Source of the DNA: Actinomycetota bacterium
GTDB taxonomy: Bacteria; Actinomycetota; Actinomycetes; Mycobacteriales; Mycobacteriaceae
Direction of reading: 5' to 3'
Length of the DNA: 62,213 nucleotides
Assembly (NCBI GenBank): GCA_018268465.1
Contig: JAFDWN010000014.1
Span: 1 to 62,213 of the forward strand
Shown here: piece by piece, positions 32,900 through 44,283 of the stretch
Numbering within the stretch: the first letter of the stretch is position 1
How the letters are laid out: each line of letters opens with the position of its first letter
Made by a program: the position numbers and the translations under genes
The notes under the pieces: generated by a model
What the model was told of the DNA's origin: nothing
The model's input: the letters and a program-made list of their open reading frames with translations, nothing else
Databases searched by the model: none

Positions 32900-33784
32900 T
32901 CAGGAGACTGCGCCGTTGATCACCGGCTTGTCGATCATGCCGTCCTCGAGACCCCAGTTGGCGGCGATCTGCTTGTAGGCACCCGACTCGATCAGATGGT
33001 CGAGGGCCTGCACCAGCGACTGCGCCAGCGGCGATCCCTTCGCGACCGGCCAGCCGTAGGGCGCCGAGTCGAACACCTCACCGGCCTTCTCCAGTTTGCC
33101 GTTGCTCTGCTTGATCGCATACAGCGTCACCGGCGAATCCGCCGACATCGCGTCGGTCTGGCCGAGCACGACGGCGTTGGTGGCCGCGTCCTGGCTGTCG
33201 AACGGGACGATCTCGATCGGCGGCTGGCCCGCGTCGGTGCACTTCTTGCTTCTGGCGGGCAGCTCGTCGGTCTCCTGGGTGGTGGTCGCCTGGACCGCGA
33301 CCTTCTTACCGCAGGCGTTCTCCGGGTCGATCCCGGAACCGACCCGCTGCGCCCACAGCGACCCCGCGGAGAAGTAGGTCACGAAGTCGACGGTCTCCTC
33401 GCGCTCCTTGGTGTCGGTGAACGACGACATGCCGACGTTGAAGGTGCCGCCCTGGATCGACGGGATGATCCTGGCGAAGTCGGCTTCCCGGTACTCCGGG
33501 GTGAGGCCGAGAGTGGATGCGATCGCATTCATCAGGTCGACGTCGAAACCGACGATCTTGCCGCTGGGGTCCTTGAACTCGTTGGGCGCGTACGGAATGT
33601 TCACGCCGATGATGAGCTTCCCGCTGGCCTTGATGTCCTCGGGCACGGTGTTGGCGATCTCATCGACCTTGTCGGCCTGGGCCGCGGTCGTCTCGGTGGT
33701 CGGCCCGCTGGATTCGCTGTTACTCGAGCACCCTGCCAAGACCATGGCGCTGCTGGCCGCGAAGACCACCGCAAACCGCCACAT
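32900..33784 (-). CDS. polar amino acid ABC transporter substrate-binding lipoprotein
   Basis: A 294-aa type II binding lipoprotein. Signal MWRFAVVFAASSAMVL with lipobox LAGC (Cys ~18), a Ser/Thr linker, then an SBP_bac_3 domain (IIGVNIPYAPNEFKD, GFDVDLMNAIASTLGL, AVLGQTDAMSADSPVTLY). The ATG at 33784 follows GAGGAAAG; the longer in-frame start at 33817 spoils the signal peptide. It heads a five-gene operon (binding protein, permease, ATPase, kinase, regulator). Its promoter region is cut about 110 bp upstream by the integrated element. Confidence 0.92.
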   Translation of the reverse strand: MWRFAVVFAASSAMVLAGCSSNSESSGPTTETTAAQADKVDEIANTVPEDIKASGKLIIGVNIPYAPNEFKDPSGKIVGFDVDLMNAIASTLGLTPEYREADFARIIPSIQGGTFNVGMSSFTDTKEREETVDFVTYFSAGSLWAQRVGSGIDPENACGKKVAVQATTTQETDELPARSKKCTDAGQPPIEIVPFDSQDAATNAVVLGQTDAMSADSPVTLYAIKQSNGKLEKAGEVFDSAPYGWPVAKGSPLAQSLVQALDHLIESGAYKQIAANWGLEDGMIDKPVINGAVS

Positions 33785-33893
33785 CTTTCCTCGACGAGTC
33801 TGACATCCACCTAACACGCTTGCCTCTTCTCTTTCATCGGGCCATCGTCCGCCGTCTCAACTCGACGACGTTAACGGCCGTGGACCCAGCGCG

Positions 33894-33912
33894 CACTGCC
33901 GGTAACGGAACA
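33894..33912. other. attachment site, left copy
   Basis: CACTGCCGGTAACGGAACA, identical to bases 44200-44218. Homology ends right after it apart from a C/T change and a short TA. It is the likely crossover core region. Confidence 0.75.
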
Positions 33913-34147
33913 CTAGGACATCGTTAGCGCTATGGTTGGGGAACTTAACCCAGTTGATGCAAAAGCGCTGTCCGCGTAGTTATCCGACAGCCGGCAAACG
34001 GTCGAGCCCTCTTATGGCACACGCATCTGCGTTCGCGAGAGGAACTCATTCTATGACCCGCACACTGGCCACGTCCGTCAACCGCGCGAGCGCCTCGCCC
34101 GCCGGTCCGTCGAACGACTGCCGGGAACCGATCACCAATCAGTCTCG

Positions 34148-34172
34148 CGACGTGCGGAAATTCCGCACGTCG
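34148..34172. promoter_or_regulatory. 25-bp perfect palindrome in the element's left regulatory region
   Basis: Arms CGACGTGCGGAA and TTCCGCACGTCG around one central A. It could be an operator for an element-encoded repressor, or a hairpin in RNA. It lies 133 bp before the ATG at 34305. Confidence 0.6.
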
Positions 34173-34231
34173 ACAAGCGCATCGATGCGATCGGAAGATG
34201 CTTTGCTAGAACAGGGAATTGGCGACGTAAG

Positions 34232-34247
34232 TGTTGTACGTACAACA
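34232..34247. promoter_or_regulatory. 16-bp perfect palindrome, candidate operator
   Basis: TGTTGTACGTACAACA ends 20 bases upstream of a -35-like TTGCGA. Its shape and place fit a dimeric repressor or activator site. Confidence 0.6.
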
Positions 34248-34267
34248 GGTTTGAGTGATCGCCCCGT

Positions 34268-34296
34268 TTGCGACGTTGCCGATGCTGGGTTAGCGT
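34268..34296 (+). promoter_or_regulatory. promoter for the left-end rightward genes
   Basis: TTGCGA (34268-34273), a 17-base spacer and TAGCGT (34291-34296) lie nine bases before the ATG at 34305. Confidence 0.5.
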
Positions 34297-34304
34297 CACC
34301 CGCC

Positions 34305-34979
34305 ATGACCACTGAGACCCTGACCACCCCCGCAGCATCTTGGCGCGACCTCGCCGACCAGCTCACCCCGGAGACCTGCGACTTCTTCGAACGCGCCGAG
34401 GCCGAGGGGAAGCTCGCCCCCGCCACCCTCCACGACATCGCCGCATCGGACGTCCGCTTGCGGCAGCAGGCCGCGGAAGCAGCCGCTGCGTTCGTCGGGG
34501 TGCCGGTGCCGGACGGCGCGCACGAGGTGGGCGACCCCGAGCTGGACGACGACGGTCACCCCTTTCGCGACCTCACGGTGGTGACCACCGGGCGCGGCGA
34601 TTGGGGCAGTGTCCGCGTGGACGCGGCCCAGCGCGTGGACGGCACCCTCTACGAGGTGCGTCTCATTGTTGACGTGTCGGACGATTGGCACGACGCGGCG
34701 ACCGCGCGTGTCATCGGCGACGCCGTCAGTGCGGCCGCCGACCACATGGCGCGGCTCGCTGACCGCCTTGCTGAGATCGACGAGTGCGAACTGTGCGACA
34801 CGGCCGGGGCCACCGCGGACGGTGGGCGGTGTGATCACGGCGTGCTCGACCTCGGCAGCCGCCCTCGCATCGTCCGCAACGCGATCGAGGCACGCGCCGC
34901 GTTGCACTTCTTCGGCGGTGACGCCGCGGCGGCTGAGCAGCTGCAAGCGTGGCGCGAGAGCTTCGGGCACAGCAAGTAG
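34305..34979 (+). CDS. element-encoded hypothetical protein with Cys cluster
   Basis: A 224-aa protein I do not recognise. It is acidic and helical at first (WRDLADQLTPETCDFFERAEAEGK), with a middle beta-rich part (FRDLTVVTTGRGDWGSVRVDAAQRVDGTLYEVRLIVDV). Near the end is a possible zinc site, CELCDTAGATADGGRCDHG. The frame stays open upstream to an ATG at 34053 behind a good AGAGGAA ribosome site; that 308-aa form would run through both palindromes, and its extra residues look unstructured. I prefer 34305 because of the promoter just before it. It is followed by a hairpin and an integrase gene. Confidence 0.7.
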   Translation: MTTETLTTPAASWRDLADQLTPETCDFFERAEAEGKLAPATLHDIAASDVRLRQQAAEAAAAFVGVPVPDGAHEVGDPELDDDGHPFRDLTVVTTGRGDWGSVRVDAAQRVDGTLYEVRLIVDVSDDWHDAATARVIGDAVSAAADHMARLADRLAEIDECELCDTAGATADGGRCDHGVLDLGSRPRIVRNAIEARAALHFFGGDAAAAEQLQAWRESFGHSK

Positions 34980-35013
34980 AGGGCACGGAACCCCAGGGAT
35001 AGGAGCCCATCGC

Positions 35014-35044
35014 GCGGGGCGCCGTCACATCAACGGCGCCCCGC
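35014..35044 (+). terminator. strong hairpin between the hypothetical gene and integrase
   Basis: GCGGGGCGCCGT and ACGGCGCCCCGC form a perfect 12-bp stem with loop CACATCA. No T-tract follows. It starts 35 bases after the upstream stop; likely a terminator or mRNA-stabilising element. Confidence 0.55.
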
Positions 35045-35076
35045 CTCCCATCCCCTCTACTTGCAGGAGCGCCCCC

Positions 35077-36090
35077 ATGGCGAGCAGTAACCGAGTCCGC
35101 ACCAACCGCTACCGCGCCAACCGCGGCGGCTTCACCTTCGAGCAGAACGGCGGCCGCTACGCCGTCCGCGACACATCCGGCACCGTGCTCTGCGACGGCG
35201 ACCTCGACACCGTCGAGGTATGGCTTGTCGAGCATGCCCCGCGTCTGCCTCCCGGGCCGACACCAGCCGCGCCGCCGCTGAACTGGGCGCCGTGGATCGC
35301 GCTGTTCGCTGACGAACAGCGCGCGGCGAAACGCCGCCCCCGCACCATTGAAACCCGCACCAAACATCTCGTTGTGCTTGCCCGGCGCCGCCCCGAACTG
35401 CAACCGCTGACGATCACCCGGGCCGACCTCGTCGAGTACCTCGCAGCGCACGAAACCCTCTGGGAGCCGCGGACGGTGCACTCAGTCGTGACCACCATGC
35501 GGGTGTTCTTCCGCCTGCTCGTCGACCTCGGCCACCGCATCGACGACCCGGCGCGCAGCCTGCCGACGGTGCGGATTCCCCGCGCGCTCCCCCGGCCGTG
35601 CCCCGACCATGTTGTCAGGGCAGCGTACGACGAGATCAGCGACGAACGCCTCCTGCTGGCGATCCGCATTGTCGTCGAGACGGGCTGCCGCCGCGGTGAG
35701 GTCGCGAATATGCATCCCAGCAACGTCGAGGGCCGCCCTGGCGAGTATCAGCTGCATATCGAAGGTAAGGGCGGCCACGAGCGGGCGGTACCGATCAGCG
35801 ACGAACTCGCGCAGCGCATCCTCGAATCCGGCGATACGTGGCTGTTCCCCGGCCGCGACGGCGGGCCGCTGACCGCGGGACATCTGGGCAAGATGATCAC
35901 CGCGGCGCTGCCGGGGCCGTGGACGACGCACACGCTGCGGCACCGCTTCGCCACCGTCGCCTACCAGGCCACCGCGGACCTACGGGCGGTGCAGGAGCTT
36001 CTCGGCCACGCCAGTCCGGTAACGACGAGCATCTATACCCGTGTTGCCGACGGCGCGATGCGTCGAGCAGCCGAGGCGGCCCGCATCTGA
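35077..36090 (+). CDS. tyrosine recombinase / integrase (left-end)
   Basis: A 337-aa tyrosine recombinase with the whole catalytic set: R205 (TGCRRGE), K231, H285-x-x-R288 (HTLRHRF), H311 (GHAS) and Y320 (SIYTRV). Residues ~70-155 are the SAM-like core-binding domain. The N-terminal ~65 residues look like an arm-type binding segment (GGFTFEQNGGRYAVRDTSG). The ATG at 35077 follows AGGAG by seven bases. It resembles in position the integrase Rv2646 at one end of phiRv2. Which of the two recombinases drives integration is not evident. Confidence 0.92.
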   Translation: MASSNRVRTNRYRANRGGFTFEQNGGRYAVRDTSGTVLCDGDLDTVEVWLVEHAPRLPPGPTPAAPPLNWAPWIALFADEQRAAKRRPRTIETRTKHLVVLARRRPELQPLTITRADLVEYLAAHETLWEPRTVHSVVTTMRVFFRLLVDLGHRIDDPARSLPTVRIPRALPRPCPDHVVRAAYDEISDERLLLAIRIVVETGCRRGEVANMHPSNVEGRPGEYQLHIEGKGGHERAVPISDELAQRILESGDTWLFPGRDGGPLTAGHLGKMITAALPGPWTTHTLRHRFATVAYQATADLRAVQELLGHASPVTTSIYTRVADGAMRRAAEAARI

Positions 36091-36334
36091 GCGAATGTCT
36101 TAACCCGTACAGCCCGAAGAATCCCCGTCATGAGGTGTTTGCTGGACGTCTCGCCAAACCAGCGAGGTCACGTGAGCGAACTGGACCTGCAACCCGTACG
36201 ACCGGGCGAACGCTAAGGCCCCTTGGGTGGGCAATCGGGACAGGTTCGAGTACCCCGCCGTACCGCCTGGCTGCCCCGCTGGGCGCCGTTTGCCACGCCC
36301 GTGTGGTGATGTACTGGCCTTGATTCTACCGAGG
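36091..36334. other. 244-bp intergenic region between left integrase and the small Cys-rich gene
   Basis: No gene recognised. The two flanking genes converge here. It contains one copy of the repeated GATTCTACCG motif at 36322-36331. No clear terminator hairpin was seen. Confidence 0.4.
36322..36331 (-). repeat. element-specific 10-mer CGGTAGAATC, copy 1
   Basis: One of three exact copies in the element (others at 39395-39404 and 42070-42079). It contains TAGAAT, a good -10 hexamer, on the minus strand. Confidence 0.45.
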
Positions 36335-36487
36335 TCAGGGGCGTTTACGGGTGACGGCGCGCAGCCGGTCGAGGCGGCGCCGGCAGCCGTTGCACAGCGG
36401 TCCGTATTCGGGGTCATCGTCGCCAGTGGCCGCCAGCTGGCAGGTTTGCGGCAGCCGGGCGGCGCAGAAGCGGGTCGGCCATCCCAT
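36335..36487 (-). CDS. 50-aa Cys-rich small protein
   Basis: A small gene in front of the left integrase end, convergent with it. The ATG at 36487 is set by a strong AGGAGGT eight bases upstream. The protein begins MGWPTRFCAARL and has C8, C16, C32 and C35 (the last pair as CNGC) in a zinc-finger-like spacing. A basic tail RRRLDRLRAVTRKRP follows. Small zinc-binding proteins of this kind are common in temperate actinophages and their satellites; the role is unknown. Confidence 0.65.
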   Translation of the reverse strand: MGWPTRFCAARLPQTCQLAATGDDDPEYGPLCNGCRRRLDRLRAVTRKRP

Positions 36488-36658
36488 CGGTCATTACCTC
36501 CTGTTCGCTGTGGTGCTGCGGTGGCTGTGCGGAGAGGTGGACGCACAGCCACCGCAGCGTGTCCTCGGCAGCCGCGCCACGACCGACAAGCGTGGGGCGC
36601 CGAGGGATGCTCGGCGGCGGCGGCCAACTGACAGGAAAGCGCCGCCGCCGAGCGGTCT

Positions 36659-37492
36659 CTACGGGGTGAGCACGACCTTGCCGATCGCGGCCGGATCGGA
36701 GAATCCCCACCCGACGCGCAGGGTCGCCCGGATCGCGGTGCGATCGCTGGTGAAGAACGCCGAGCTGTCGGGCACGACGCTCGTGCCTGATCGCATCGCG
36801 ACGACGACCCGGCTGCGCGGGATCGACCACACGATGTCCTCGGCGATGGCCGGCGAGGTGAGCAGCGGGACACCGGCCACGGTGCGCGCGGCGGGCGCGG
36901 TCGGATCGGGCTGCAGAAGTGGACGGTTGGAGCCGGTCTCATCCTTGAGCGAGGCCAGGTCCAGCGCGGTGTTCGGGTGGCAGACGAACGCGTCCACGGT
37001 CACGTTGTGCAGCTCGGCGAGGGTTTTCGCCTGCTCGGCCCAATCCAAGTTCACCCACGTGTCCCCGGCGTCGATGGTGGTCGACGCGATGCTCAGCAGC
37101 CCCGCGGGTCCGTTGGTGGTGGTGTTCGCGAAGAACGCCGCGTCGATTTTGCGGGCCAGGTCGCGCACCAAGCCCTCGCCGACGACGCCGAGTGCTGCCG
37201 GGCTGGAGTCGGCCGCGAGTTCGTTGGACACGACGACGAGGCCGGCGAGCTTCTTCGGCACGACGTCCACCTCGATGAGCGTCGGATCGCTGACGGCGAT
37301 CTCGGCGCCTTCGGCGGTCCATGCCGCCGACGGGTCTGCGGACACGATCGGCAGGCGCAGCGAGCCTGCGGTGATGGGGACGACGCGGCCGACGCGGGTG
37401 GCGACAGACTGCGCGATCAGCGGTCGGACGACGAGTTCGTCGACCTGCTCGACGGACAGGATCGCTGCACCGCCGGAAGTGGTCAGAGCCAT
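36659..37492 (-). CDS. HK97-family major capsid protein
   Basis: A 277-aa HK97-fold capsid protein. Recognisable parts are LPIVSADPSAAWTAEGAEI, the spine and P-domain-like region VDVVPKKLAGLVVVSNELAADS, then LARKIDAAFFANTT, a nucleotide-like loop in VCHPNTALDLASLKD, and a final RVGWGFSDPAAIGKVVLT. It is shorter than full-length precursors: the N-terminal delta (scaffold) domain is missing, consistent with the separate scaffold-like gene just upstream. The start follows AGGAG. A homologous gene (Rv2650c) is the hallmark of phiRv2. No terminase or portal is present, so packaging would need a helper. Confidence 0.88.
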   Translation of the reverse strand: MALTTSGGAAILSVEQVDELVVRPLIAQSVATRVGRVVPITAGSLRLPIVSADPSAAWTAEGAEIAVSDPTLIEVDVVPKKLAGLVVVSNELAADSSPAALGVVGEGLVRDLARKIDAAFFANTTTNGPAGLLSIASTTIDAGDTWVNLDWAEQAKTLAELHNVTVDAFVCHPNTALDLASLKDETGSNRPLLQPDPTAPAARTVAGVPLLTSPAIAEDIVWSIPRSRVVVAMRSGTSVVPDSSAFFTSDRTAIRATLRVGWGFSDPAAIGKVVLTP

Positions 37493-37568
37493 GTTGTTCT
37501 GTTCTCCTATGAAGTTGTTGTAAATTGTTGTGTTAGTTCGTGTTTCGGCAACTGCGCCTCCGGGGCTT

Positions 37569-38138
37569 TTAGCCGATCAGCCGCCCCAGCGCCGAGTGCC
37601 AGCTGGTGGGCTCGGTGCGCGGCGTGGGTGACGCTCCGGGCGTCAGCTGTTCGATGGGACGGTTCGTGGGCGGTGCCGTCACCGGCGGCGGCGCGGCTAC
37701 GTGTGGGCGATCGGCGATGAGTTCCTGGGCCGCCGCGGTGACGAGGTTCGGGTCGACGTGGCCGTCTTCGGTCAGGAAATGTGCGACCGAGGTGCGGTCG
37801 AGCAGGTCGCGCGGGTCCCGAAGGTGCTGGGCGGCCAGGCGTTCGACTTCACCGCGCCGCAGGGTGTCGACCACATTGAGCAGTGAATCACGTTCCTGCT
37901 CAGCAGCTTTCGCCCGGTCGCGCAGGTTCTTGTTCTCCACTCGGATGGCCCGGGCGCGGTGCAGGTCGTGCAGGCTGGCCTCGGGCTGGTCGTCGTCGCC
38001 ACCGTCGGCGGCCGGCTCGGTTTCGGGTGCCGGATCGGGCTCGGTAGTCGGCGTGGAGAGTTGGCGCGGCATCGCGGCGGGTGACGGTGCGGCCGGGGCA
38101 TCGTCTGCGGTCCAGCCGGAATCGGTCGTGTCGGGCAT
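37569..38138 (-). CDS. probable capsid scaffold-like protein
   Basis: A 189-aa protein. Residues 1-60 are low-complexity Pro/Ala/Asp/Glu (ETEPAADGGDDDQPE). Residues ~60-105 form a coiled coil (ARAIRVENKNLRDRAKAAEQERDSLLNVVDTLRRGEVERLAAQHL), then a DPRDLLDR/LTEDGHVDPNLV segment and a Pro-rich end. This layout, directly before the capsid gene, is typical of phage scaffold proteins; I saw no protease motif. The ATG at 38138 is preferred over an in-frame start at 38405, which would overlap the next gene. Confidence 0.7.
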   Translation of the reverse strand: MPDTTDSGWTADDAPAAPSPAAMPRQLSTPTTEPDPAPETEPAADGGDDDQPEASLHDLHRARAIRVENKNLRDRAKAAEQERDSLLNVVDTLRRGEVERLAAQHLRDPRDLLDRTSVAHFLTEDGHVDPNLVTAAAQELIADRPHVAAPPPVTAPPTNRPIEQLTPGASPTPRTEPTSWHSALGRLIG

Positions 38139-38151
38139 ATTCTGTTGTCTC

Positions 38152-38631
38152 TCAGTCAGTTTCGTCGATTTGGTCGAGCTGGGGGAATTCGCGCCGTCGC
38201 ACGGAGGGTGTCGGAAACGACACCCAGGTGTAGACGAGCAGATCGTCGGGGATCTCGTGGCCGAGATGCTCCAGTAGCGCCAGCTCGGTGGGTGTCGCGT
38301 CCCGAACGAACCGCGCGTAACCGAGCCAGCCGAGCCGCAACCGGCCGGCGGCCTGGGCGGCGTCGAACTCCTCGACAGAGTCGGGCACCCAGCTGCGGCG
38401 ACCACTCGGCGCCGAGGCGGGCACCGTCATCTGCCCGTTGCGCCAACGCAGCTCGACGCTGTCGGGCACACCACCGTTGGCGCGGTCGCGGTCGGCCGCC
38501 AGGGTGCTGTCCTCGGCCAGCTGCATCTCGGGCGGAAGGAACTCGAACACGAGCGGGCCGCGGGGGTCGGTGCCCGCGGCGGCACGCTCCAGCTGCGGAC
38601 CGACGCCGGGGATCATCCACGGCTCGGTCAC
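38152..38631 (-). CDS. element-encoded hypothetical protein
   Basis: A 159-aa acidic protein with conserved-looking blocks MTEPWMIPGVGPQLERAAAG, VEEFDAAQAAGRLRLGWLGYARFVRD and LEHLGHEIPDDLLVYTWVSF. I do not recognise the family. It sits between the scaffold-like gene and two further small genes in one tightly packed minus-strand operon. A structural or connector role is possible by position only. The GTG start overlaps the upstream TGA (GTGA). Confidence 0.75.
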   Translation of the reverse strand: MTEPWMIPGVGPQLERAAAGTDPRGPLVFEFLPPEMQLAEDSTLAADRDRANGGVPDSVELRWRNGQMTVPASAPSGRRSWVPDSVEEFDAAQAAGRLRLGWLGYARFVRDATPTELALLEHLGHEIPDDLLVYTWVSFPTPSVRRREFPQLDQIDETD

Positions 38632-38996
38632 TGGGCACCGGCCTCGCGGGCTGCGTCGCGGCGAAACTCGTCCACCTCGTCACTAAGCCGCATCACCGCC
38701 AGTTCGCGGCCGAGCGCGTCGTCGAGCCGGCGGGAGGCGAGGTCCACCAGGGCCACCAGGACGGCGGCCCACGGGTCACCCTTCGGCGCGATGCTGGCGC
38801 GGTGAGTGTCCGCAATCAGCTGCAGGACATCGCGGGCCGAGCGCCCGGAGTCGACGTGCCGATGCTCGACGTGGCTGCGAAGCATGTCGGCGATCCTGGC
38901 CGACACCGCAGGGTCGCGATAGTCGGCGAGGTGGTCGTGCGGGGCATCGAGTGGCCAATCTGCCGGGTACGCGTCGCGGTCGTCGTCGTCAAACAC
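38628..38996 (-). CDS. element-encoded hypothetical protein
   Basis: A 122-aa largely helical protein (RIADMLRSHVEHRHVDSGRSARDVLQLIADTHRA, VLVALVDLASRRLDDALGRELAVMRLSDEVDEFRRDA). The GTG at 38996 overlaps the upstream gene by 8 bp and gives MFDDDDRDAYPADW. No domain recognised; it could be a small terminase- or head-associated protein, but no motif supports this. Confidence 0.7.
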   Translation of the reverse strand: MFDDDDRDAYPADWPLDAPHDHLADYRDPAVSARIADMLRSHVEHRHVDSGRSARDVLQLIADTHRASIAPKGDPWAAVLVALVDLASRRLDDALGRELAVMRLSDEVDEFRRDAAREAGAQ

Positions 38997-39276
38997 TTCG
39001 CGCCTCCGGGTAGCCGGCGACGGCCAGCTCGGCGTCGGCGAGCATCCGGTCGACCATCGGGTGCTCGCCGGCTGCGTGAAGGGTTCGGAGGAATTCGGTC
39101 GCGGACAGCGCCGCCGCTGCATCATCACGCGCAACACGAGCAGCCTCGCGATGCCACATGCACGTGAGGCCGGTTCTGGCGACCGGGGTGCGGCACGGTT
39201 CGCCGCTGGCCTTCGGGCGGCCACAACGGGTTTGATGCGCGGGCACAGGACCGCGAGGATCTTGATACGTCGTCAT
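38989..39276 (-). CDS. small Cys/His-motif protein
   Basis: A 95-aa protein with a short metal-binding-like motif near the N-terminus: CGRPKASGEPC, a spacer, then CMWH. A helical C-terminus follows (AAALSATEFLRTLHAAGEHPMVDRMLADAELAVAG). Proteins with this C/C/CxxH header are frequent in actinophages, of unknown function. The start at 39276 (MTTYQDPRG) follows AGGAG; the upstream in-frame start adds 52 unlikely residues. A TAGAAT box lies ~120 bases upstream. Confidence 0.75.
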   Translation of the reverse strand: MTTYQDPRGPVPAHQTRCGRPKASGEPCRTPVARTGLTCMWHREAARVARDDAAAALSATEFLRTLHAAGEHPMVDRMLADAELAVAGYPEARSV

Positions 39277-39394
39277 TGGGTGGGAAGCTCCTGGAATGGG
39301 TACGACAAATTCGGGACGAAAACACCGAGTTGTCGTCGCCTCCAGGACGACGCGCGAGGCACGCGCCTCCGGGGCGGCGTGCGAACTCAGCTTC

Positions 39395-39404
39395 GATTCT
39401 ACCG
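39395..39404 (-). repeat. element-specific 10-mer CGGTAGAATC, copy 2 (possible -10 region)
   Basis: On the minus strand it contains TAGAAT, with TTGCGC 19 bases upstream. It is placed to transcribe the 39276-36335 gene block. Confidence 0.45.
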
Positions 39405-39444
39405 GGCGCCACCAACTTTGGCGCAACGTCAATTCGTCGCCGAG

Positions 39445-39588
39445 CTAGTCGAGCGCCTCTGCGAGAGCGTCGAGCAGTTCGGTGGCCACCGCAGGCGTGA
39501 TGGCGAACTGCCATGATTCTTGGTCGACGTCGAGCACCTCGATCGAGATCTCGTCATCGTCGGTCAGTGAAACGCGAGTGTCGGGCAC
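39445..39588 (-). CDS. 47-aa acidic small protein
   Basis: A small gene starting at GTG 39588 with AGGAG about ten bases upstream. The protein begins MPDTRVSLTDDDEISIEVL and continues with WQFAITPAVATELLDALAEAL: a short beta hairpin followed by an amphipathic helix, strongly acidic. No family recognised. It is first in the leftward gene block after the repeat cluster and could be a regulator or a DNA mimic; that is speculation. Confidence 0.6.
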   Translation of the reverse strand: MPDTRVSLTDDDEISIEVLDVDQESWQFAITPAVATELLDALAEALD

Positions 39589-39917
39589 GGTCTGGGATCT
39601 CCTGTGTTTGGTCGTGGACGGCCCCGGTTGGCCATCGCGGGATTGGTGCTGCAGTTCATTAACTGGGCGGGGGCATCCGTCGCCTGTTCGCTGTTCGCTC
39701 TTATAGAGCGAGCGAACAATGCGAACAATGGCTGACGGTGTTTGCCAGGGCTGCCGAACAAGGATCTAGGCGAACAGCTCTGACCTGCTTGTTCGGCATT
39801 GTTCGTCGTTGTTCGGACAATGCCGCGAACAATGCGATGCTGTTTGCTGATCATTGTTCGGTCGCTCCGAACAATGCCGCCGGCAGCGCTGACCGAGGCG
39901 TGTTTGCTGGCGGGCGT
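39589..39917. promoter_or_regulatory. 329-bp non-coding region with CGAACA/TGTTCG repeat cluster (iteron-like)
   Basis: Between the 3' end of the prim-pol gene and the 39588 gene. Bases 39685-39878 contain about 12 copies of CGAACA or its complement. Most extend to CGAACAATGC-like 10-mers, in both orientations and at irregular spacing. Two pairs form perfect inverted repeats: ATTGTTCGG/CCGAACAAT (39853-39875) and GCCGAACAAG/CTTGTTCGGC (39753-39797). The stretch is richer in A and T than its surroundings. It is a candidate replication origin or a multi-site operator. Confidence 0.75.
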
Positions 39918-41948
39918 CTATTTGTCGTCATCAGAGCCCGTCCAAGGGTCTTCCGCGGTGGCCGTCGTCCAGCGCCGCGGGTCACCTCCAGCGGTCCCGG
40001 CGTAGGTGACAACCAGCAGCCCGGTGGCGGTCATCTTGTCGAGCTGCCGGCGGATGCTACTGCGGTGGCTGCCGATCCTCTCGGCCCCGTACACCGCGGC
40101 AATGAGGTCAGCCACGGTGAAGTCGCCGCCCGCGGCGGCGGCCACGAGCTGGTGGATTGGCACGAGCAGCTGCCGCATTGTCTGATCGGCGACGGGCACC
40201 TCGCTGAGCCCCCGCGGCACCTGGCTGCGGCTCGTGATGTGCCACCGCGGCGGCCCGTCGAGCGGCTCGTCGAGGACGAACGTGCCGCAGTCGAACAGCC
40301 CCCGGGCCAGTGGCTCGCAGTTTGACCGAACACCCGAATGGCGGTCCTTCTGCCCGATCAAAGCCAGCTCGCCCCCCTTACCGCGGACCAGCTTGCGGAC
40401 CGGATCGACGCGGATCAAGGCACCGCCCAACTTCCGACGTTTCGCCATCGTGCCGCCCGCCCCGTACGCGCGGCTGTCCTTGCCTTTCGCAAAGTGGTCG
40501 ATCAGGATGACCGCGGCACCCGCACGCACGAGCGGCAGCACATGGGTATTGACGATGCGTGTGTAGTCGTCGGTCGAATCAGAGTTACCGTCGCAGGTCG
40601 ACACCAACTCGCCGACACTGTCAATCACGACCACGTCGGGCGCCCACGCTGCGCAGTCGGCGACTACCCGCGCCAGCCGGCCGGTGTCCTCCTGCGGGTC
40701 GGTGTAGCGGAACCGTTGCAGCTCGCGCAGCGCCTCGGGGGGCGCGCCGAGGGTTAGTAGCCGGTCGACGACCGACGCCAGGCCATTGTGATCCATATCG
40801 ATGAACGCGGCGCTGCCGCCGTCGATGAGTGCCTGCGCGATCGCGGCCAAGGTCACGAACGTCTTGCCGTCCTCGGGATCTCCGATCAGCGAGTTGATCT
40901 CACCGCGGTAAAACAACGCTGAGCCGTCCTCACGCCGAAGAATGGTCGGCGTCGGTGGCGGCGGCAGGGTGCCGTCGAGCAGGGCGGCCACGTCGCCGTA
41001 GAGGGGCGGTTCTATGTCCTCGTCGACAATGTGTTGTGCAGAAGTAACGGGCTCCTCGTCAAACGCCTGCCCCGCCGGGTAGCGGCGGTACACGTCACGC
41101 AATTTGGCCAGCGCCTCATCCCATGTGACCGGGTACGGGCAGTCGGGGTCATGGTGTTCCGCTTCGGGGATCTGCCCGACAGGCTGAACGCACAGCAGCC
41201 ATCGGAGCCGGTACGCCGGTTCCGCTTCGGCGTAGTCGAGCCCTGATTTCCGCAGCCGGCCGGCGTAGGCGATCAGGGCTTGGTGGCGGGTGTGCATCTC
41301 GATCTTTTCAGGGACCGGACTGGCGCGGTCGACCGCGAGGAACCTCTCTGATGCCGATATCGTCTCGTCGGTCGCGCCGCCGTTGTTGGCAGCGATCAGC
41401 ATCTCGGCCACCTCGGCAGGCAGTTCCGCCACGTCGAGACCATTGCCCGTGTAGGTGGCACCGCTGGCGTGGCGCGCCCCCTCGGCGATGGCGTACCCAC
41501 CGTAGCCGCGCACGTCGATCTTCCGGCCGCCGAACACCTTCGGGCTGTTGCCGATCGGTTGGGCGTCGTGGTCCCACCGGAAATACAGGTGCCGCCCGCG
41601 TCCGGTGGTCACGATGTAGGTGGCCGGCAAGGTGATTCCGTATGTGGTGCACCATTCATCGAGTGCGCCTGCCTCGTCCTCGTCGAGGATGACCAAGTTG
41701 GACGGGCCGCAGGACACGGCGGGATTGGCCTGGCCGCCATGTTTTGTCCATACCAAGTCGATCATCTGCGCCGTGACGGTTTGTGCCCACGTCCCCCAGG
41801 AGACGGCCGGGTGCTTGCCCCGCATGCCATCGCAGGGATTGCCGGGGCCGTGCTTGCCGATGCACCGCTGCTGGTCGGGATGATCACACGGGAACACGTG
41901 GAATCCGCGTGCGTGTAATTCCCTTGCGGTGGATACTAGTTCGCTCAC
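39918..41948 (-). CDS. bifunctional primase-polymerase (prim-pol) / RepA-like helicase
   Basis: A 676-aa replication protein. Residues ~1-185 are an AEP-type prim-pol domain (NLVILDEDE acidic motif, TTGRGRHLYF, IDVRGYGGYAIAEGARHASGATY). Residues ~345-560 are a RecA/RepA-like ATPase with Walker A GDPEDGKT (356-363) and Walker B VVVIDS (439-444). The C-terminal ~100 residues resemble a winged helix (ADLIAAVYGAERIGSHRSSIRRQLDKMTATGLL). Such proteins start and unwind replication of phages, plasmids and satellites. The GTG start overlaps the upstream gene (GTGA). The repeat cluster downstream is a possible origin for it. Confidence 0.88.
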   Translation of the reverse strand: MSELVSTARELHARGFHVFPCDHPDQQRCIGKHGPGNPCDGMRGKHPAVSWGTWAQTVTAQMIDLVWTKHGGQANPAVSCGPSNLVILDEDEAGALDEWCTTYGITLPATYIVTTGRGRHLYFRWDHDAQPIGNSPKVFGGRKIDVRGYGGYAIAEGARHASGATYTGNGLDVAELPAEVAEMLIAANNGGATDETISASERFLAVDRASPVPEKIEMHTRHQALIAYAGRLRKSGLDYAEAEPAYRLRWLLCVQPVGQIPEAEHHDPDCPYPVTWDEALAKLRDVYRRYPAGQAFDEEPVTSAQHIVDEDIEPPLYGDVAALLDGTLPPPPTPTILRREDGSALFYRGEINSLIGDPEDGKTFVTLAAIAQALIDGGSAAFIDMDHNGLASVVDRLLTLGAPPEALRELQRFRYTDPQEDTGRLARVVADCAAWAPDVVVIDSVGELVSTCDGNSDSTDDYTRIVNTHVLPLVRAGAAVILIDHFAKGKDSRAYGAGGTMAKRRKLGGALIRVDPVRKLVRGKGGELALIGQKDRHSGVRSNCEPLARGLFDCGTFVLDEPLDGPPRWHITSRSQVPRGLSEVPVADQTMRQLLVPIHQLVAAAAGGDFTVADLIAAVYGAERIGSHRSSIRRQLDKMTATGLLVVTYAGTAGGDPRRWTTATAEDPWTGSDDDK

Positions 41949-42148
41949 GCAGCCGCCCCCGCCGCGGCGGCCCGGCGAACATGTCGCCAGCAGGTCGCGC
42001 CGCACTCGCGCCGCACCGATCGCGGCGCCCAGATGACGCGGCGGCAGTGGCGGCAACGGGGTGTTGTTGCGGTAGAATCAGGGCGGGTCGTAATGCTGCT
42101 GGAGGGCGCCGCATCCGGGACTGGGGTGCGGCGTTTTTCATTTGTCAC
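41945..42148 (-). CDS. 67-aa Cys-rich basic small protein
   Basis: The protein has CRHC and CGATC pairs about 17 residues apart within a basic stretch (RRVIWAPRSVRREC), a probable zinc finger, and an Ala-rich end. The GTG at 42148 follows GGAG and overlaps at its stop with the prim-pol start (GTGA), so the two are coupled. It could help load the replication protein; no family recognised. Confidence 0.65.
   Translation of the reverse strand: MTNEKRRTPVPDAAPSSSITTRPDSTATTPRCRHCRRVIWAPRSVRRECGATCWRHVRRAAAAGAAA
42070..42079 (+). repeat. element-specific 10-mer CGGTAGAATC, copy 3
   Basis: Same 10-mer as at 36322 and 39395 but on the plus strand, inside the 67-aa gene. TAGAAT would read toward the right end. 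Confidence 0.4.
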
Positions 42149-42217
42149 GCAAGTGACTCCATGTTCTGTTGTGTGAATTCAGTTGTGTTGTTGTGGCGCA
42201 ATAATTTCGCATCGCGC

Positions 42218-42526
42218 CTATGCGGTTGCCCGCAGTTCCGCAGCGACAGCTGCGTGGTCGTCAGCCTTGCGCCGCACCCGGGTTCGGCGAACCTGCGCCG
42301 ATTTCAGCGCCATGCGCTGGTAGTGGGCTTTGCGTGCACTCTCGGCGCGCTTGCGGCGTTCCTCGACGGGCAGCGCGCCGCCAGGGTCGACTAGCTTCTC
42401 GAATCGCGCATCAGCAGCGCGGCGGCCGGGCTCAGTGCGCGCGGTGCGGTCCTCGGTGCGCGCCCAGCTCTCGTGGGCGCCGATGCGCCCGAACAGTGTC
42501 TTGTCGGCGGGGGTAGTTTCAGCCAT
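42218..42526 (-). CDS. basic helical small protein
   Basis: A 102-aa Arg/Ala-rich protein (FGRIGAHESWARTEDRTARTEPGRRAADARFEKLVDPGGALPVEERRKRAESARKAHYQRMALKSAQVRRTRVRRKADDH). It seems mostly helical and would bind nucleic acid by charge. Similar small proteins stand next to the replication gene in many actinobacterial elements, by my recollection; function unknown. The ATG at 42526 follows AGGAG; the longer in-frame start at 42586 adds 20 residues. Confidence 0.7.
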   Translation of the reverse strand: MAETTPADKTLFGRIGAHESWARTEDRTARTEPGRRAADARFEKLVDPGGALPVEERRKRAESARKAHYQRMALKSAQVRRTRVRRKADDHAAVAAELRATA

Positions 42527-43207
42527 TGAGTAGGTCTCCTGATCAGACAGCAGTGATCGATGTCTGATCGGTCCCTCGCCCGCCACTACCCACGATTCCA
42601 GTGGGGCGCCTGGCCGATCTAGTGCTTCCGGCTACCTGGGTTTCCTGGCTTCCCGCCGTCGCGATCGGCTGTGCACGTCGTGAGTGAGCGACACGATGCC
42701 AATCAGCGGGTCCGTCTATAGCGTAAAGCGCCATGGCCACGTTTCGCCACGTGACTTGTCGTCGCGGTCGCTGCGGGGGCGATCAGTTGAACCAGTCGCG
42801 GTGCTCACCACCACAACTGCCCACGGCGACTGGAGCTGTCCCGCGAACTACAGGGTGACGCCGCAGTTAATGTGCGTCGGCACGAGCGAGAACTCGCTCG
42901 TGCAATAGGGAAGGCCCAGATTCGCGAGGAGGTTGCGACCCGGTCATCCGCAGCCGTGGCTATGCGCGCCCGGGAGCGAGGTGAAGGCTACATCTCGCTA
43001 CCGACCGCCAATAGCTACTTTTCTCATTCATACGAGCGGCGCGATGCGGGCCATATGGCGGACGCTTCCGATGAGCAGTTCGACGAAGCGTTAAACGAGG
43101 CCATTGCTGCCACCCGCAACGCGAGGGCGACTTCCTGGCGCTATGACAACCTTGAAGATCCCGCACCGCGGCCACACACACACGTGGGGGCGACACTTGC
43201 CGACCGG
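42527..43207. other. 681-bp region without a confident gene, before the right-end integrase 3' end
   Basis: I see no gene I would call firmly. A plus-strand frame from GTG 42872 (or ATG 43055, MADASDEQFDEALNEAIAATRNARATSWRYDN) has an acidic, gene-like start but then runs antisense into the integrase gene. The region holds a palindrome at 42880-42903. An excisionase gene would be expected here, but none was recognised. Confidence 0.4.
42880..42903. promoter_or_regulatory. 24-bp perfect palindrome
   Basis: Arms GCACGAGCGAG and CTCGCTCGTGC around AA. It is a candidate regulator or recombination-factor site, or the stem of a hairpin, in the gap between the replication and integrase genes. Confidence 0.5.
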
Positions 43208-44107
43208 CTACGTCAGGTCCACGCCGATGTTCAGCCGGTCGAACTCGTCGGCGGCCAGCTCCTCGCTCGCCGACCGCACGTACCTGTCGATCATCTTCCG
43301 GCTCTGCCAGCCGGCCTGCGCCATGAGCCCGGTCTCGCTGCCGCCGGCCCGCAGCCACCGCACCGCGGCGGTATGTCTCAGGCGATGCGGGTGGAATCCA
43401 CCGATACCCGCGGCCTCCGCGCGCGCCTTTAGTGCCGACTTCATCCCGGTGTACGACAACGGGCCGCGTGGCCCGACCCACAAGGCGCCGCGATCGCCAG
43501 CGTGGCCCGCCTTGCGCCGAGCGCGGAGGTACTTGTCGAGCACCGCGGCGGCCTGCGGTGAGAACTTGCTGCGGCGCCCCTTCGCGCCTTTGCCCCGGCG
43601 CACGACGAGGACGCATTCAGCGATGGACACGTCGGAGACGTCGAGCGCTAGCATCTCGGAGGCACGCAGGCCGGTCTCGGTGAACAGCACCACGAGCGCT
43701 TTGTCGCGCTTGTCGCGCAGCTCGGCACCGTCGCAGACGCGAATCATCGCCTGCACTGCCTGATCGGACAGGTGCGGGACAACGCGTTGATCAAGCTTTG
43801 GTGAACGTACGGTAAGAATCGGATCGGCGTCGAAATTCTCCTCATCGGCCAGCCAGCGCGCGAAAAGCTTGACCGCGGTTAGCCGTAGGCGCGCGGTGGC
43901 CGGTTCGGCGTCGGCGAGGTCAGCCATCCACGCCACCACGTTAGCCTTGGTTAACTCGGGCGAAATCCCTTGCGCTGCACAGAATTCGAGGAATGACACG
44001 ACGCCTGAGCGGTACACCTTGAGCGTGCTCGGGCTTTTGCGCTGCCCTCGGAGTGCGGTTAGCCACGACGGCAGCAGCTCGGCAAGGTCCAGCGAAGCGG
44101 TCGACAT
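43208..44107 (-). CDS. tyrosine recombinase / integrase (right-end)
   Basis: A 299-aa XerD-like tyrosine recombinase. Catalytic R148 (TGLRASE), K in RRGKGAKGRRS, H241-x-x-R244 (HPHRLRHT), W267 in place of the second His (AGWQS) and nucleophile Y276 (IDRYVRS) are all present. The N-terminal ~95 residues are the SAM-like core-binding domain. The ATG at 44107 lies six bases behind TAAGAT, so a leaderless transcript is likely. It ends ~90 bp from attR in the way integrases flank their attachment site, making it the likely integrase of the element. Confidence 0.93.
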   Translation of the reverse strand: MSTASLDLAELLPSWLTALRGQRKSPSTLKVYRSGVVSFLEFCAAQGISPELTKANVVAWMADLADAEPATARLRLTAVKLFARWLADEENFDADPILTVRSPKLDQRVVPHLSDQAVQAMIRVCDGAELRDKRDKALVVLFTETGLRASEMLALDVSDVSIAECVLVVRRGKGAKGRRSKFSPQAAAVLDKYLRARRKAGHAGDRGALWVGPRGPLSYTGMKSALKARAEAAGIGGFHPHRLRHTAAVRWLRAGGSETGLMAQAGWQSRKMIDRYVRSASEELAADEFDRLNIGVDLT

Positions 44108-44113
44108 CCTGTT

Positions 44114-44119
44114 ATCTTA
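44114..44119 (-). promoter_or_regulatory. -10 box of the right-end integrase
   Basis: The minus strand reads TAAGAT, six bases, then ATG at 44107. A second box TAATAC lies further up. No clear -35 was seen. Confidence 0.55.
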
Positions 44120-44199
44120 CAGTGGAGCGCCATAGTCGTGTATTATCGGCACTCAGATCAGTAAATCTGCTGGTCAAAGCAATTTCGAGGGGATCGACT

Positions 44200-44218
44200 C
44201 ACTGCCGGTAACGGAACA
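44200..44218. other. attachment site, right copy
   Basis: CACTGCCGGTAACGGAACA, identical to 33894-33912. It lies 78 bases before the HdeD-like start. No tRNA gene is involved. Confidence 0.75.
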
Positions 44219-44283
44219 TTAACGACCGCGCACCGACAACACAGCCGTACTGCTAAATCCACACTCGCCCATCGGGCATGTGC

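What the first reader, a model, noticed from the sequence alone, without database searches (positions are those of the whole stretch)
33894..44218. A compact phage-satellite-like element with capsid and replication genes but no packaging genes
Seen: a 19-bp direct repeat bounds 10.3 kb with two tyrosine recombinases, a prim-pol/RepA helicase, an HK97-type capsid, a scaffold-like protein and at least seven small genes. Not seen: terminase large subunit, portal, tail or lysis genes. Known: phiRv1 and phiRv2 of M. tuberculosis have similar size and order (integrase, capsid, small genes, primase-like gene, integrase) and were long called remnants. Inference: this is a family of capsid-encoding satellites that builds its own shell and borrows a helper's packaging motor and tail.
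Basis: partly seen in the sequence, partly recalled or inferred. Interest (0 to 1): 0.8.

Follow-up and report, generated by a model that had tools for sequence, protein, structure and literature searches.

The report
Phage satellite building its own head
A 10.3-kb mobile element in a mycobacterium carries its own replication genes and its own virus-shell genes but no recognised DNA-packaging motor or tail, so it most likely spreads by borrowing those from a visiting phage; it belongs to a large, already noticed family that others tie to phiRv1 and phiRv2.

Summary
A perfect 19-bp repeat bounds 10,306 bp; 17 of 19 relatives' loci have an empty site. No terminase, portal, protease, connector, tail or lysis family matched. 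Capsid relatives occur in 86 of 248 genus genomes, in elements of three kinds: head only, head plus small terminase/neck genes, head plus large terminase and portal. Twelve deposited "phages" of 10.9-11.1 kb belong near the second kind. Element length is held near 10 kb: the two arms compensate (rho -0.56, n=44; also in phylogenetic contrasts), as expected for a fixed-size shell of about T=3 capacity. Best reading: a phiRv-type, capsid-encoding phage satellite that borrows motor and tail (inferred). The window copy keeps a DNA block that precedes the small-terminase gene of its closest relative, but two other genes stand where that gene would be, so its present mobility is uncertain. Such elements were named candidate PICIs in 2023; it fails the definition of capsid-forming PICI.

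The parts
33894..33915 (+). attL core (22 bp, 21/22 like attR; 19 bp identical)
   Evidence: empty site in 17 of 19 relatives' loci
44200..44221 (+). attR core
43208..44107 (-). Int2, tyrosine recombinase starting 93 bp from attR; the likely integrase of the element
   Evidence: PF00589 E 1.6e-24; best relatives 46-51% identical in other elements
42218..42526 (-). P10, small gene that travels with Int2-type integrases (phrog_2842, unknown function)
   Evidence: phrog_2842 E 1.1e-8; homologs near Int2 homologs in L038, L051, L079
41945..42148 (-). 67-aa protein with cysteines, unknown
   Evidence: ORF; homologs in L035 and L042; no significant family
39918..41948 (-). prim-pol / RecA-fold helicase, replication protein
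   Evidence: PF09250 E 3.2e-22, AAA_25 E 1.4e-7
39713..39876 (.). iteron cluster: 6 exact CGAACAATG in both orientations plus 4 near copies, just past the 3' end of the helicase gene; probable replication origin
   Evidence: expected 0.34 in the window, 0 of 100 shuffles reach 6; near copies; a repeated word at the same place in 17 of 43 elements, window included
38989..39276 (-). P7, 95 aa, cysteine-containing, unknown
   Evidence: ORF with ribosome-binding-like site; no significant family
38628..38996 (-). P6, 122 aa, unknown
   Evidence: ORF; no significant family
38152..38631 (-). P5, conserved protein directly upstream of the scaffold, unknown function
   Evidence: homologs near the scaffold in 17 of 54 loci, window included (L086 inverted); 22 invariant columns in 8 sequences; model pLDDT 70, pTM 0.66, not compared with known folds
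37569..38138 (-). head scaffolding protein
   Evidence: phrog_4708 E 7.8e-6; WillG scaffold finds it, E 3.8e-9
36659..37492 (-). major capsid protein, HK97 family, 277 aa
   Evidence: PF05065 E 1.3e-31, phrog_10 E 1.7e-43; family profile finds solved phage capsids
36335..36487 (-). 50-aa CxxC-type protein, conserved in the closest relative
   Evidence: 60% over 40 aa in L035, E 3.4e-12; weak phrog_5905, unknown function, E 0.0049
36210..36430 (-). block conserved with the DNA just before the small-terminase gene of L035; candidate packaging site (its 36335-36430 part overlaps the 50-aa ORF)
   Evidence: 69% over 222 nt, E 5e-20; in 297 genomes the only long match besides the window itself, E 3e-18
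35077..36090 (+). Int1, second tyrosine recombinase, in the variable end after the capsid
   Evidence: PF00589 E 7.9e-25; homolog in the same place and orientation in L159, E 4.8e-48
34305..34979 (+). P1, 224 aa, unknown; weak homologs, 2 of 14 checked lie next to a tyrosine integrase

Best explanation
A capsid-encoding phage satellite of the phiRv1/phiRv2-like kind. Shown: it inserted by site-specific recombination at a 22-bp site in front of a solute-binding-protein gene; it encodes a replication protein beside an iteron cluster; it encodes a capsid and a scaffold of a family whose elements keep a length near 10 kb. Its closest relative has a small-terminase gene behind a conserved DNA block. 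This copy has the block, but Int1 and P1 stand in place of that gene, so the helper or a co-resident element would have to supply small terminase, or this copy packages poorly.
For: att repeat and empty sites. All 12 ORFs open; third codon positions differ most from L035 in capsid (0.75/0.79/0.59) and scaffold (0.66/0.70/0.46). Iterons. Same order in relatives; capsid relatives in 86 of 248 genus genomes. 38 of 44 tyrosine-integrase elements measure 8.5-11.4 kb; arms compensate: rho -0.56, p 7.7e-5, SD 1301 versus 1729 permuted, P 0.0023; without large-terminase elements n=39, rho -0.48; phylogenetic contrasts r -0.37, P 0.007. Twelve deposited records of 10.87-11.08 kb; the two viewed in full have the same module order. 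In 16 of 37 loci with TerS a cos-like motif lies 78-390 bp before it (the motif was drawn from five of those 16), and the L032 copy matches the ends of mycobacteriophage records, weakly. Genome length fits T=3 (11.78 kbp, 8.1-17.1; PMC7762592, passages).
Against: No excision, particle or transduction was observed. No small terminase, portal or known-type cos site was found in this copy, though its sister has a small terminase. Int1/P1 may mark damage. No tape-measure match in the host genome (PF10145, PF20155), so no resident helper was identified. No repressor or excisionase was identified. In the 19 elements with capsid identity of 45% or more the SD test of length fails (P 0.33) although the MAD test passes (P 0.0025); in the other 25 it is the reverse (SD P 0.0006, MAD P 0.05). 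Whether the 11-kb records were grown with a helper is not stated in what I saw.
Confidence: 0.75

Rival explanations
1. A disabled derivative: once a satellite with its own small terminase, it lost the packaging end when Int1-P1 replaced it and is now stranded.
For: Sister L035 has the small terminase behind the block this copy keeps; Int1/P1 occupy that place; no TerS found.
Against: All ORFs open and length still 10.3 kb; 23 other elements of the 44 also lack any packaging or neck gene recognised by my profiles, some with a TIR or DNA-methylase gene there, so lacking TerS need not mean death. That 23 is an upper bound: one element first counted so had a divergent TerS (L079) and only part of their ORFs was scanned against Pfam or PHROGs.
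Confidence: 0.3
2. A remnant of an ordinary full-length prophage that lost tail, lysis and packaging genes.
For: Capsid, scaffold and integrase are phage-type.
Against: Relatives across the genus and other actinobacterial genera have the same compact order and similar length; no tail or lysis family matched; the capsid's best deposited-phage matches are the twelve 11-kb records at about 34%, while the other 18 rows listed are at 22-27% (30 further rows not listed).
Confidence: 0.05
3. A head gene kept to sabotage phages (decoy shell or wrong-size heads) rather than to package the element.
For: No packaging gene in this copy; two of the relatives scanned carry defence-like cargo (TIR, methylase).
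Against: Family length control, cos-like motifs and small terminases in relatives point to packaging.
Confidence: 0.12

Closest known systems
Candidate PICIs / phiRv-like elements of mycobacteria (PMC10654092, 2023; passages seen)
   Same: Integrase plus major capsid gene in one region; diverse capsids; tyrosine or serine integrase; phiRv1 and phiRv2 included by those authors
   Different: Two tyrosine integrases here; no terminase; non-tRNA attachment site; origin, length compensation and module exchange were not in the passages seen
phiRv1 (9.3 kb, serine integrase) and phiRv2 (10.8 kb, tyrosine integrase) (PMC3986857, passages seen)
   Same: Length; general plan as far as recalled
   Different: One recombinase each; their gene sequences were not compared here
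Capsid-forming PICI (definition as quoted in PMC10690885)
   Same: Own capsid and integrase
   Different: Large and small terminase, portal, protease, connectors and HNH not found here
Mycolicibacterium phage WillG and 11 kin (OR387110-OR387121)
   Same: 10.87-11.08 kb; capsid, scaffold and integrase in the same circular order (two records viewed in full)
   Different: They carry small terminase, adaptor, stopper and a 651-aa tape measure, and a serine integrase; capsid about 34% identical
Mulch/Flayer satellites of Streptomyces phages (PMC10690885, passages seen)
   Same: Satellites with capsid genes in Actinomycetota
   Different: They carry large terminase and portal and lack obvious replicases; the window element is the reverse

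Membership tests
[quoted passage not shown]
Candidate PICI of mycobacteria (PMC10654092) | Recognised by SatelliteFinder as PICI (62% of their regions were) | not testable with these tools
   program not available
Capsid-forming PICI | Major capsid protein | tested here: met
   PF05065 E 1.3e-31
Capsid-forming PICI | Portal, head maturation protease, connectors | tested here: not met
   no match
Capsid-forming PICI | Large and small terminase, HNH endonuclease | tested here: not met
   no match
Phage satellite in general | Integrates site-specifically | tested here: met
   att repeat and empty sites
Phage satellite in general | Own replication module | tested here: met
   prim-pol/helicase and iterons; replication itself not assayed
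Phage satellite in general | Mobilised by a helper phage | not testable with these tools
   needs infection experiments
phiRv1/phiRv2 | Shared gene sequences | not tested
   their sequences were not fetched
Complete temperate phage | Terminase, portal, tail and lysis genes | tested here: not met

The most novel reading that the evidence does not exclude
A widespread actinobacterial class of satellites whose conserved unit is a small head (capsid plus scaffold, P5 in one branch) of fixed capacity near 10 kb, around which the packaging motor is interchangeable: self-made, half-borrowed (own small terminase and helper-type cos site) or wholly borrowed, the window element being the barest form. 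Their particles would be natural T=3 tailed-phage-type heads, an architecture whose absence among solved tailed-phage capsids a 2020 paper called puzzling.
Probability: 0.35. Interest if true: 0.8.

Novelty: new variant of a known kind. Interest (0 to 1): 0.55.

Why it matters
phiRv1 and phiRv2 were long listed as prophage-like elements. The family comparison gives sequence evidence that elements of this kind are kept at a packageable length, replicate from their own origin and, in the WillG type, may share cos-like ends with mycobacteriophages. That turns a 2023 label (candidate PICI) into testable statements about which parts are borrowed, and offers candidates for T=3 tailed-phage heads, a gap stated in print (PMC7762592).

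Tried and rejected
Reading the ORF 42872-43432 (+) as a gene: its only conserved part is the antisense of Int2 and no family matched significantly. Int1 as the family's standard second integrase: at E<=1e-20 only one other called gene matched, in L159. A helper identified by matching the block 36210-36430: no convincing phage match; in 297 genomes 53 had some match at E<=1e-3, but apart from the window and L035 the listed ones are short pieces, the next best 50 bases at E 6e-8. A resident tailed prophage as helper: PF10145 and PF20155 gave 0 matches; two of four large-terminase hits (C48, C70) lie in capsid elements that also have a portal, the two weaker ones were not examined. Global identity of the sub-blocks after the capsid was uninformative because gaps inflate it, so that the 36210-36430 block is more constrained than its surroundings rests on the local match alone. 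Profiles for capsid, scaffold, P5 and helicase contain the window's own sequence and are not used as evidence for those. P5 fold: model made, fold search never ran, profile search of solved structures gave nothing credible. Capsid model: job accepted but failed; none is used. An earlier count said 16 of 19 empty sites and 37 of 44 lengths; recounting gives 17 of 19 and 38 of 44.
Full report
WHAT IS THERE. The window is contig C5 of an unnamed 6.88-Mb genome. Relatives in its genus group match named Mycobacterium/Mycolicibacterium contigs by length (for example G014:C15, 335,296 bases, NZ_JAFEVR010000012.1), so the host is a mycobacterium in the broad sense; the species is unknown. A 19-bp repeat occurs exactly twice in the window, at 33894-33912 and 44200-44218, 10,306 bp apart. 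Outside it the left and right flanks match relatives in which they are neighbours: 17 of 19 loci have both within 0.7 kb, and L102 shows the uninterrupted site; L099 and L107 had no right-flank match (the left flank had been sought in 61 genomes and found in 28). The site lies about 80 bp in front of the start of a solute-binding-protein gene (32900-33817, minus strand, PF00497 E 3e-28).

GENES. On the minus strand, from attR inward: Int2, P10, a 67-aa protein, prim-pol/RecA-fold helicase, P7, P6, P5, scaffold, capsid and a 50-aa CxxC protein. On the plus strand, at the attL end: P1 and Int1. All twelve are open with start and stop. All twelve products were scanned with Pfam and PHROGs and ten with NCBIfam. 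No terminase, portal, protease, connector, tail or lysis family matched below E 0.05, nor did profiles built here from relatives' small terminase, large terminase, portal, connector and HNH genes. At the third codon position capsid and scaffold differ most from L035 (capsid identity 0.75, 0.79, 0.59 at positions 1, 2, 3), as for genes under selection.

ORIGIN. Just past the 3' end of the helicase gene, 39713-39876, the word CGAACAATG occurs six times in both orientations. The window as a whole should hold 0.34, and 0 of 100 shuffles reach six. Four near copies lie among them (over the whole window the looser pattern is only mildly in excess, 31 against 20.6). In 17 of 43 elements of the family, this one included, some 8-base word is repeated beyond 1% of shuffles in the 700 bp after the helicase-like gene; in 26 it is not. 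A replication protein beside iterons is the plan of a self-replicating satellite (that comparison is recalled, not searched).

FAMILY. Capsid relatives occur in 86 of 248 genus genomes (E<=1e-10), with five places in this genome alone, and in named Nocardia, Rhodococcus, Corynebacterium, Prescottella, Saccharomonospora, Microlunatus, Actinomyces, Pseudonocardia and Dietzia genomes. From the list I fetched 80 stretches, stronger matches first; the rest were not fetched. With the loci (three duplicates and one distant Eubacteriales hit dropped) and the window, 54 loci were compared first, later 99 with five viral contigs (two weak ones dropped) and two phage records; L165 and L171 gave no capsid hit and were dropped. 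The common order is integrase, small genes, primase-helicase, small genes, scaffold, capsid, then a variable end. P5 homologs were found in 17 of 54, window included. The variable end may hold HNH, small terminase (phrog_1496), adaptor, stopper or a VG15-type protein, or cargo such as a TIR protein or a DNA methylase. In a third set, large terminase and portal stand before the scaffold. Gene calls in relatives come from a simple codon-score caller of my own, so absences there are less certain than in the window. Among 44 elements with both ends called, 24 (window included) show no packaging or neck gene by my profiles, 15 show some, 5 have large terminase or portal (L079 moved to the second group).

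MODULE EXCHANGE. In a maximum-likelihood tree of 95 capsids the window copy is sister to L035, which has a small terminase (100/100), then L036 (none, 98/87) and L037 (small terminase, 98/97). Labels in that tree, taken from a fixed span around the capsid and not from called ends: small terminase 38, none 34, large terminase plus portal 15, other packaging genes 8. Well-supported branches force at least 15 changes for the small-terminase label and 3 for large terminase plus portal. One clade (88/88) holds capsids of elements with only small terminase (L031, L066) and of elements with large terminase and portal (L060, L068). The head stays; the motor changes.

LENGTH. For 47 loci with an upstream tyrosine integrase and enough sequence I looked for flanking repeats; 44 passed a score of 17, while reversed-sequence controls never exceeded 16 (L080 scored 15, two had no seed). 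Elements with serine integrases or the integrase at the other end are not in this set. Ends were not checked against empty sites except in the window; a few repeats (L078 for one) may be integrase-arm sites or other tRNA genes. 38 of 44 measure 8.5-11.4 kb; the outliers are 4.8, 6.8, 7.4, 8.1, 12.3 and 12.6 kb. If length were unconstrained, the arm before the capsid and the arm after it should vary independently. They compensate: Spearman rho -0.56, p 7.7e-5; SD of total 1301 against 1729 when arms are permuted, P 0.0023. It holds without the five large-terminase elements (n=39, rho -0.48, p 0.0019; SD P 0.017) and in phylogenetic contrasts on a capsid tree (r -0.37, sign-flip P 0.007; -0.55 without the capsid fragment L151). 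In the subset with capsid identity of 45% or more (n=19) the SD test fails (P 0.33) while the MAD test passes (P 0.0025); in the rest (n=25) SD P is 0.0006 and MAD P 0.05. A fixed-size shell explains this. The model in PMC7762592 (passages) gives 11.78 kbp for T=3 (8.1-17.1), 8.14-8.94 for T about 2.3-2.5 and 17.98 for T=4 (13.2-24.5). T=3 is the best fit, T about 2.5 is not excluded, and no particle has been seen. I did not run the same length test on islands without a capsid.

PACKAGED RELATIVES. Twelve GenBank records of Mycolicibacterium aichiense phages, 10,866-11,078 bp, are the closest deposited phages by capsid (34-35%). I viewed two in full (WillG and Alyssa1, both from soil); seven of the others are at least 99% and three about 94% identical to WillG in the part compared. 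The two are annotated with terminase (97 and 134 aa; phrog_1496 in WillG, i.e. the small subunit), adaptor, stopper, integrase, capsid and tape measure. I scanned 12 of the 17 WillG products with Pfam and/or PHROGs and found no large terminase, portal or lysin. A cos-like motif GACCGGnnGnTAnTGCG (one mismatch allowed) lies 78-184 bp (once 390) before the small-terminase gene in 16 of 37 loci that have one; it was drawn from five of these 16. Over 99 loci there are 23 matches against 4 in one shuffle, and seven of the 23 are not upstream of a recognised small terminase. A 50-base piece around the motif in L032, another element of this genome, matches the 11-kb records (E 2e-3 and up) and the last 23-24 bases of several Mycobacterium smegmatis phage records (E 0.3-1, weak by itself but at the exact record end). 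So the WillG-type elements plausibly present a helper's cos site. The motif was not found in the window copy.

THE WINDOW COPY. Its DNA after the capsid (36210-36430) is 69% identical over 222 nt (E 5e-20) to the DNA just before the small-terminase gene of L035. A 19-base word, CACCCAAGGGGCCnTAGCG, is shared and stands 102 bp before that gene. Part of the block codes for the 50-aa protein in both. No small terminase follows in the window; Int1 and P1 occupy the place. An Int1 homolog sits at the same place in L159. The simplest history is replacement of the packaging end at about constant length, but L036 also lacks a recognised small terminase, so loss is not proven.

MECHANISM. Shown: integration, open replication and head genes, family-wide length control. 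Inferred: excision by Int2, replication from the iterons, a small head from capsid plus scaffold, filling by a helper's terminase and portal, and a borrowed tail. Small terminase must come from helper or neighbour, or packaging is poor. This genome holds five further capsid elements (C71, C22, C43, C48, C70); C48 and C70 also have large terminase and portal, so they might supply parts; that is speculation. No tape-measure family matched the genome (PF10145, PF20155), so a resident tailed helper was not found.

WHAT IS KNOWN. PMC10654092 (passages) defined candidate PICIs in mycobacteria as phage-like regions with integration machinery and a capsid gene, tied the phiRv elements to them, and stated that induction by phages had not yet been demonstrated. 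The cf-PICI definition (quoted from PMC10690885, passages) is not met. Nine searches of the paper library listed no paper whose title or abstract start announces mobilisation of such an element in mycobacteria; these are capped listings, not full texts, and most subscription papers are missing from the library.

Noticed in passing
L031, L032, L033, L034, L196 (own genome, contigs C71, C22, C43, C48, C70): Five further capsid-bearing elements in the same genome; C71 and C22 have small terminase, adaptor and stopper; C48 and C70 have large terminase and portal.
   Followed up: partly
L130:8075-10030, L131:8355-10310, L050:1595-5734: Some of these small elements encode their own tape-measure protein (651 aa in WillG and Alyssa1, 1379 aa in L050), as if they also set the length of a borrowed tail.
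   Followed up: partly
L031, L032, L064, L066, L131, L133, L135 and others: A cos-like motif GACCGGnnGnTAnTGCG precedes the small-terminase gene and, in L032, resembles the ends of mycobacteriophage records.
   Followed up: partly
L043:2736-4268, L049:4466-5695: Possible defence cargo (TIR domain, C-5 DNA methylase) in the variable end after the capsid.
   Followed up: no
window 34116-34137: A third att-like copy, 17 of 22; 1 of 60 shuffles reached 17. Possibly a trace of an earlier insertion.
   Followed up: partly
window 33817-33915: The attachment site lies in front of a solute-binding-protein gene (PF00497), among GTAAC/GGAAC-like boxes that recall nitrogen-regulator sites (recalled, not tested).
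   Followed up: no
window 36515-36558: A perfect 17-bp inverted repeat with a 10-nt loop about 100 bp after the capsid gene; perhaps a terminator.
   Followed up: no
L138, L145: Two elements with a longer capsid ORF (349 aa) and an adaptor; L145 also has the cos-like motif without a recognised small terminase.
   Followed up: no
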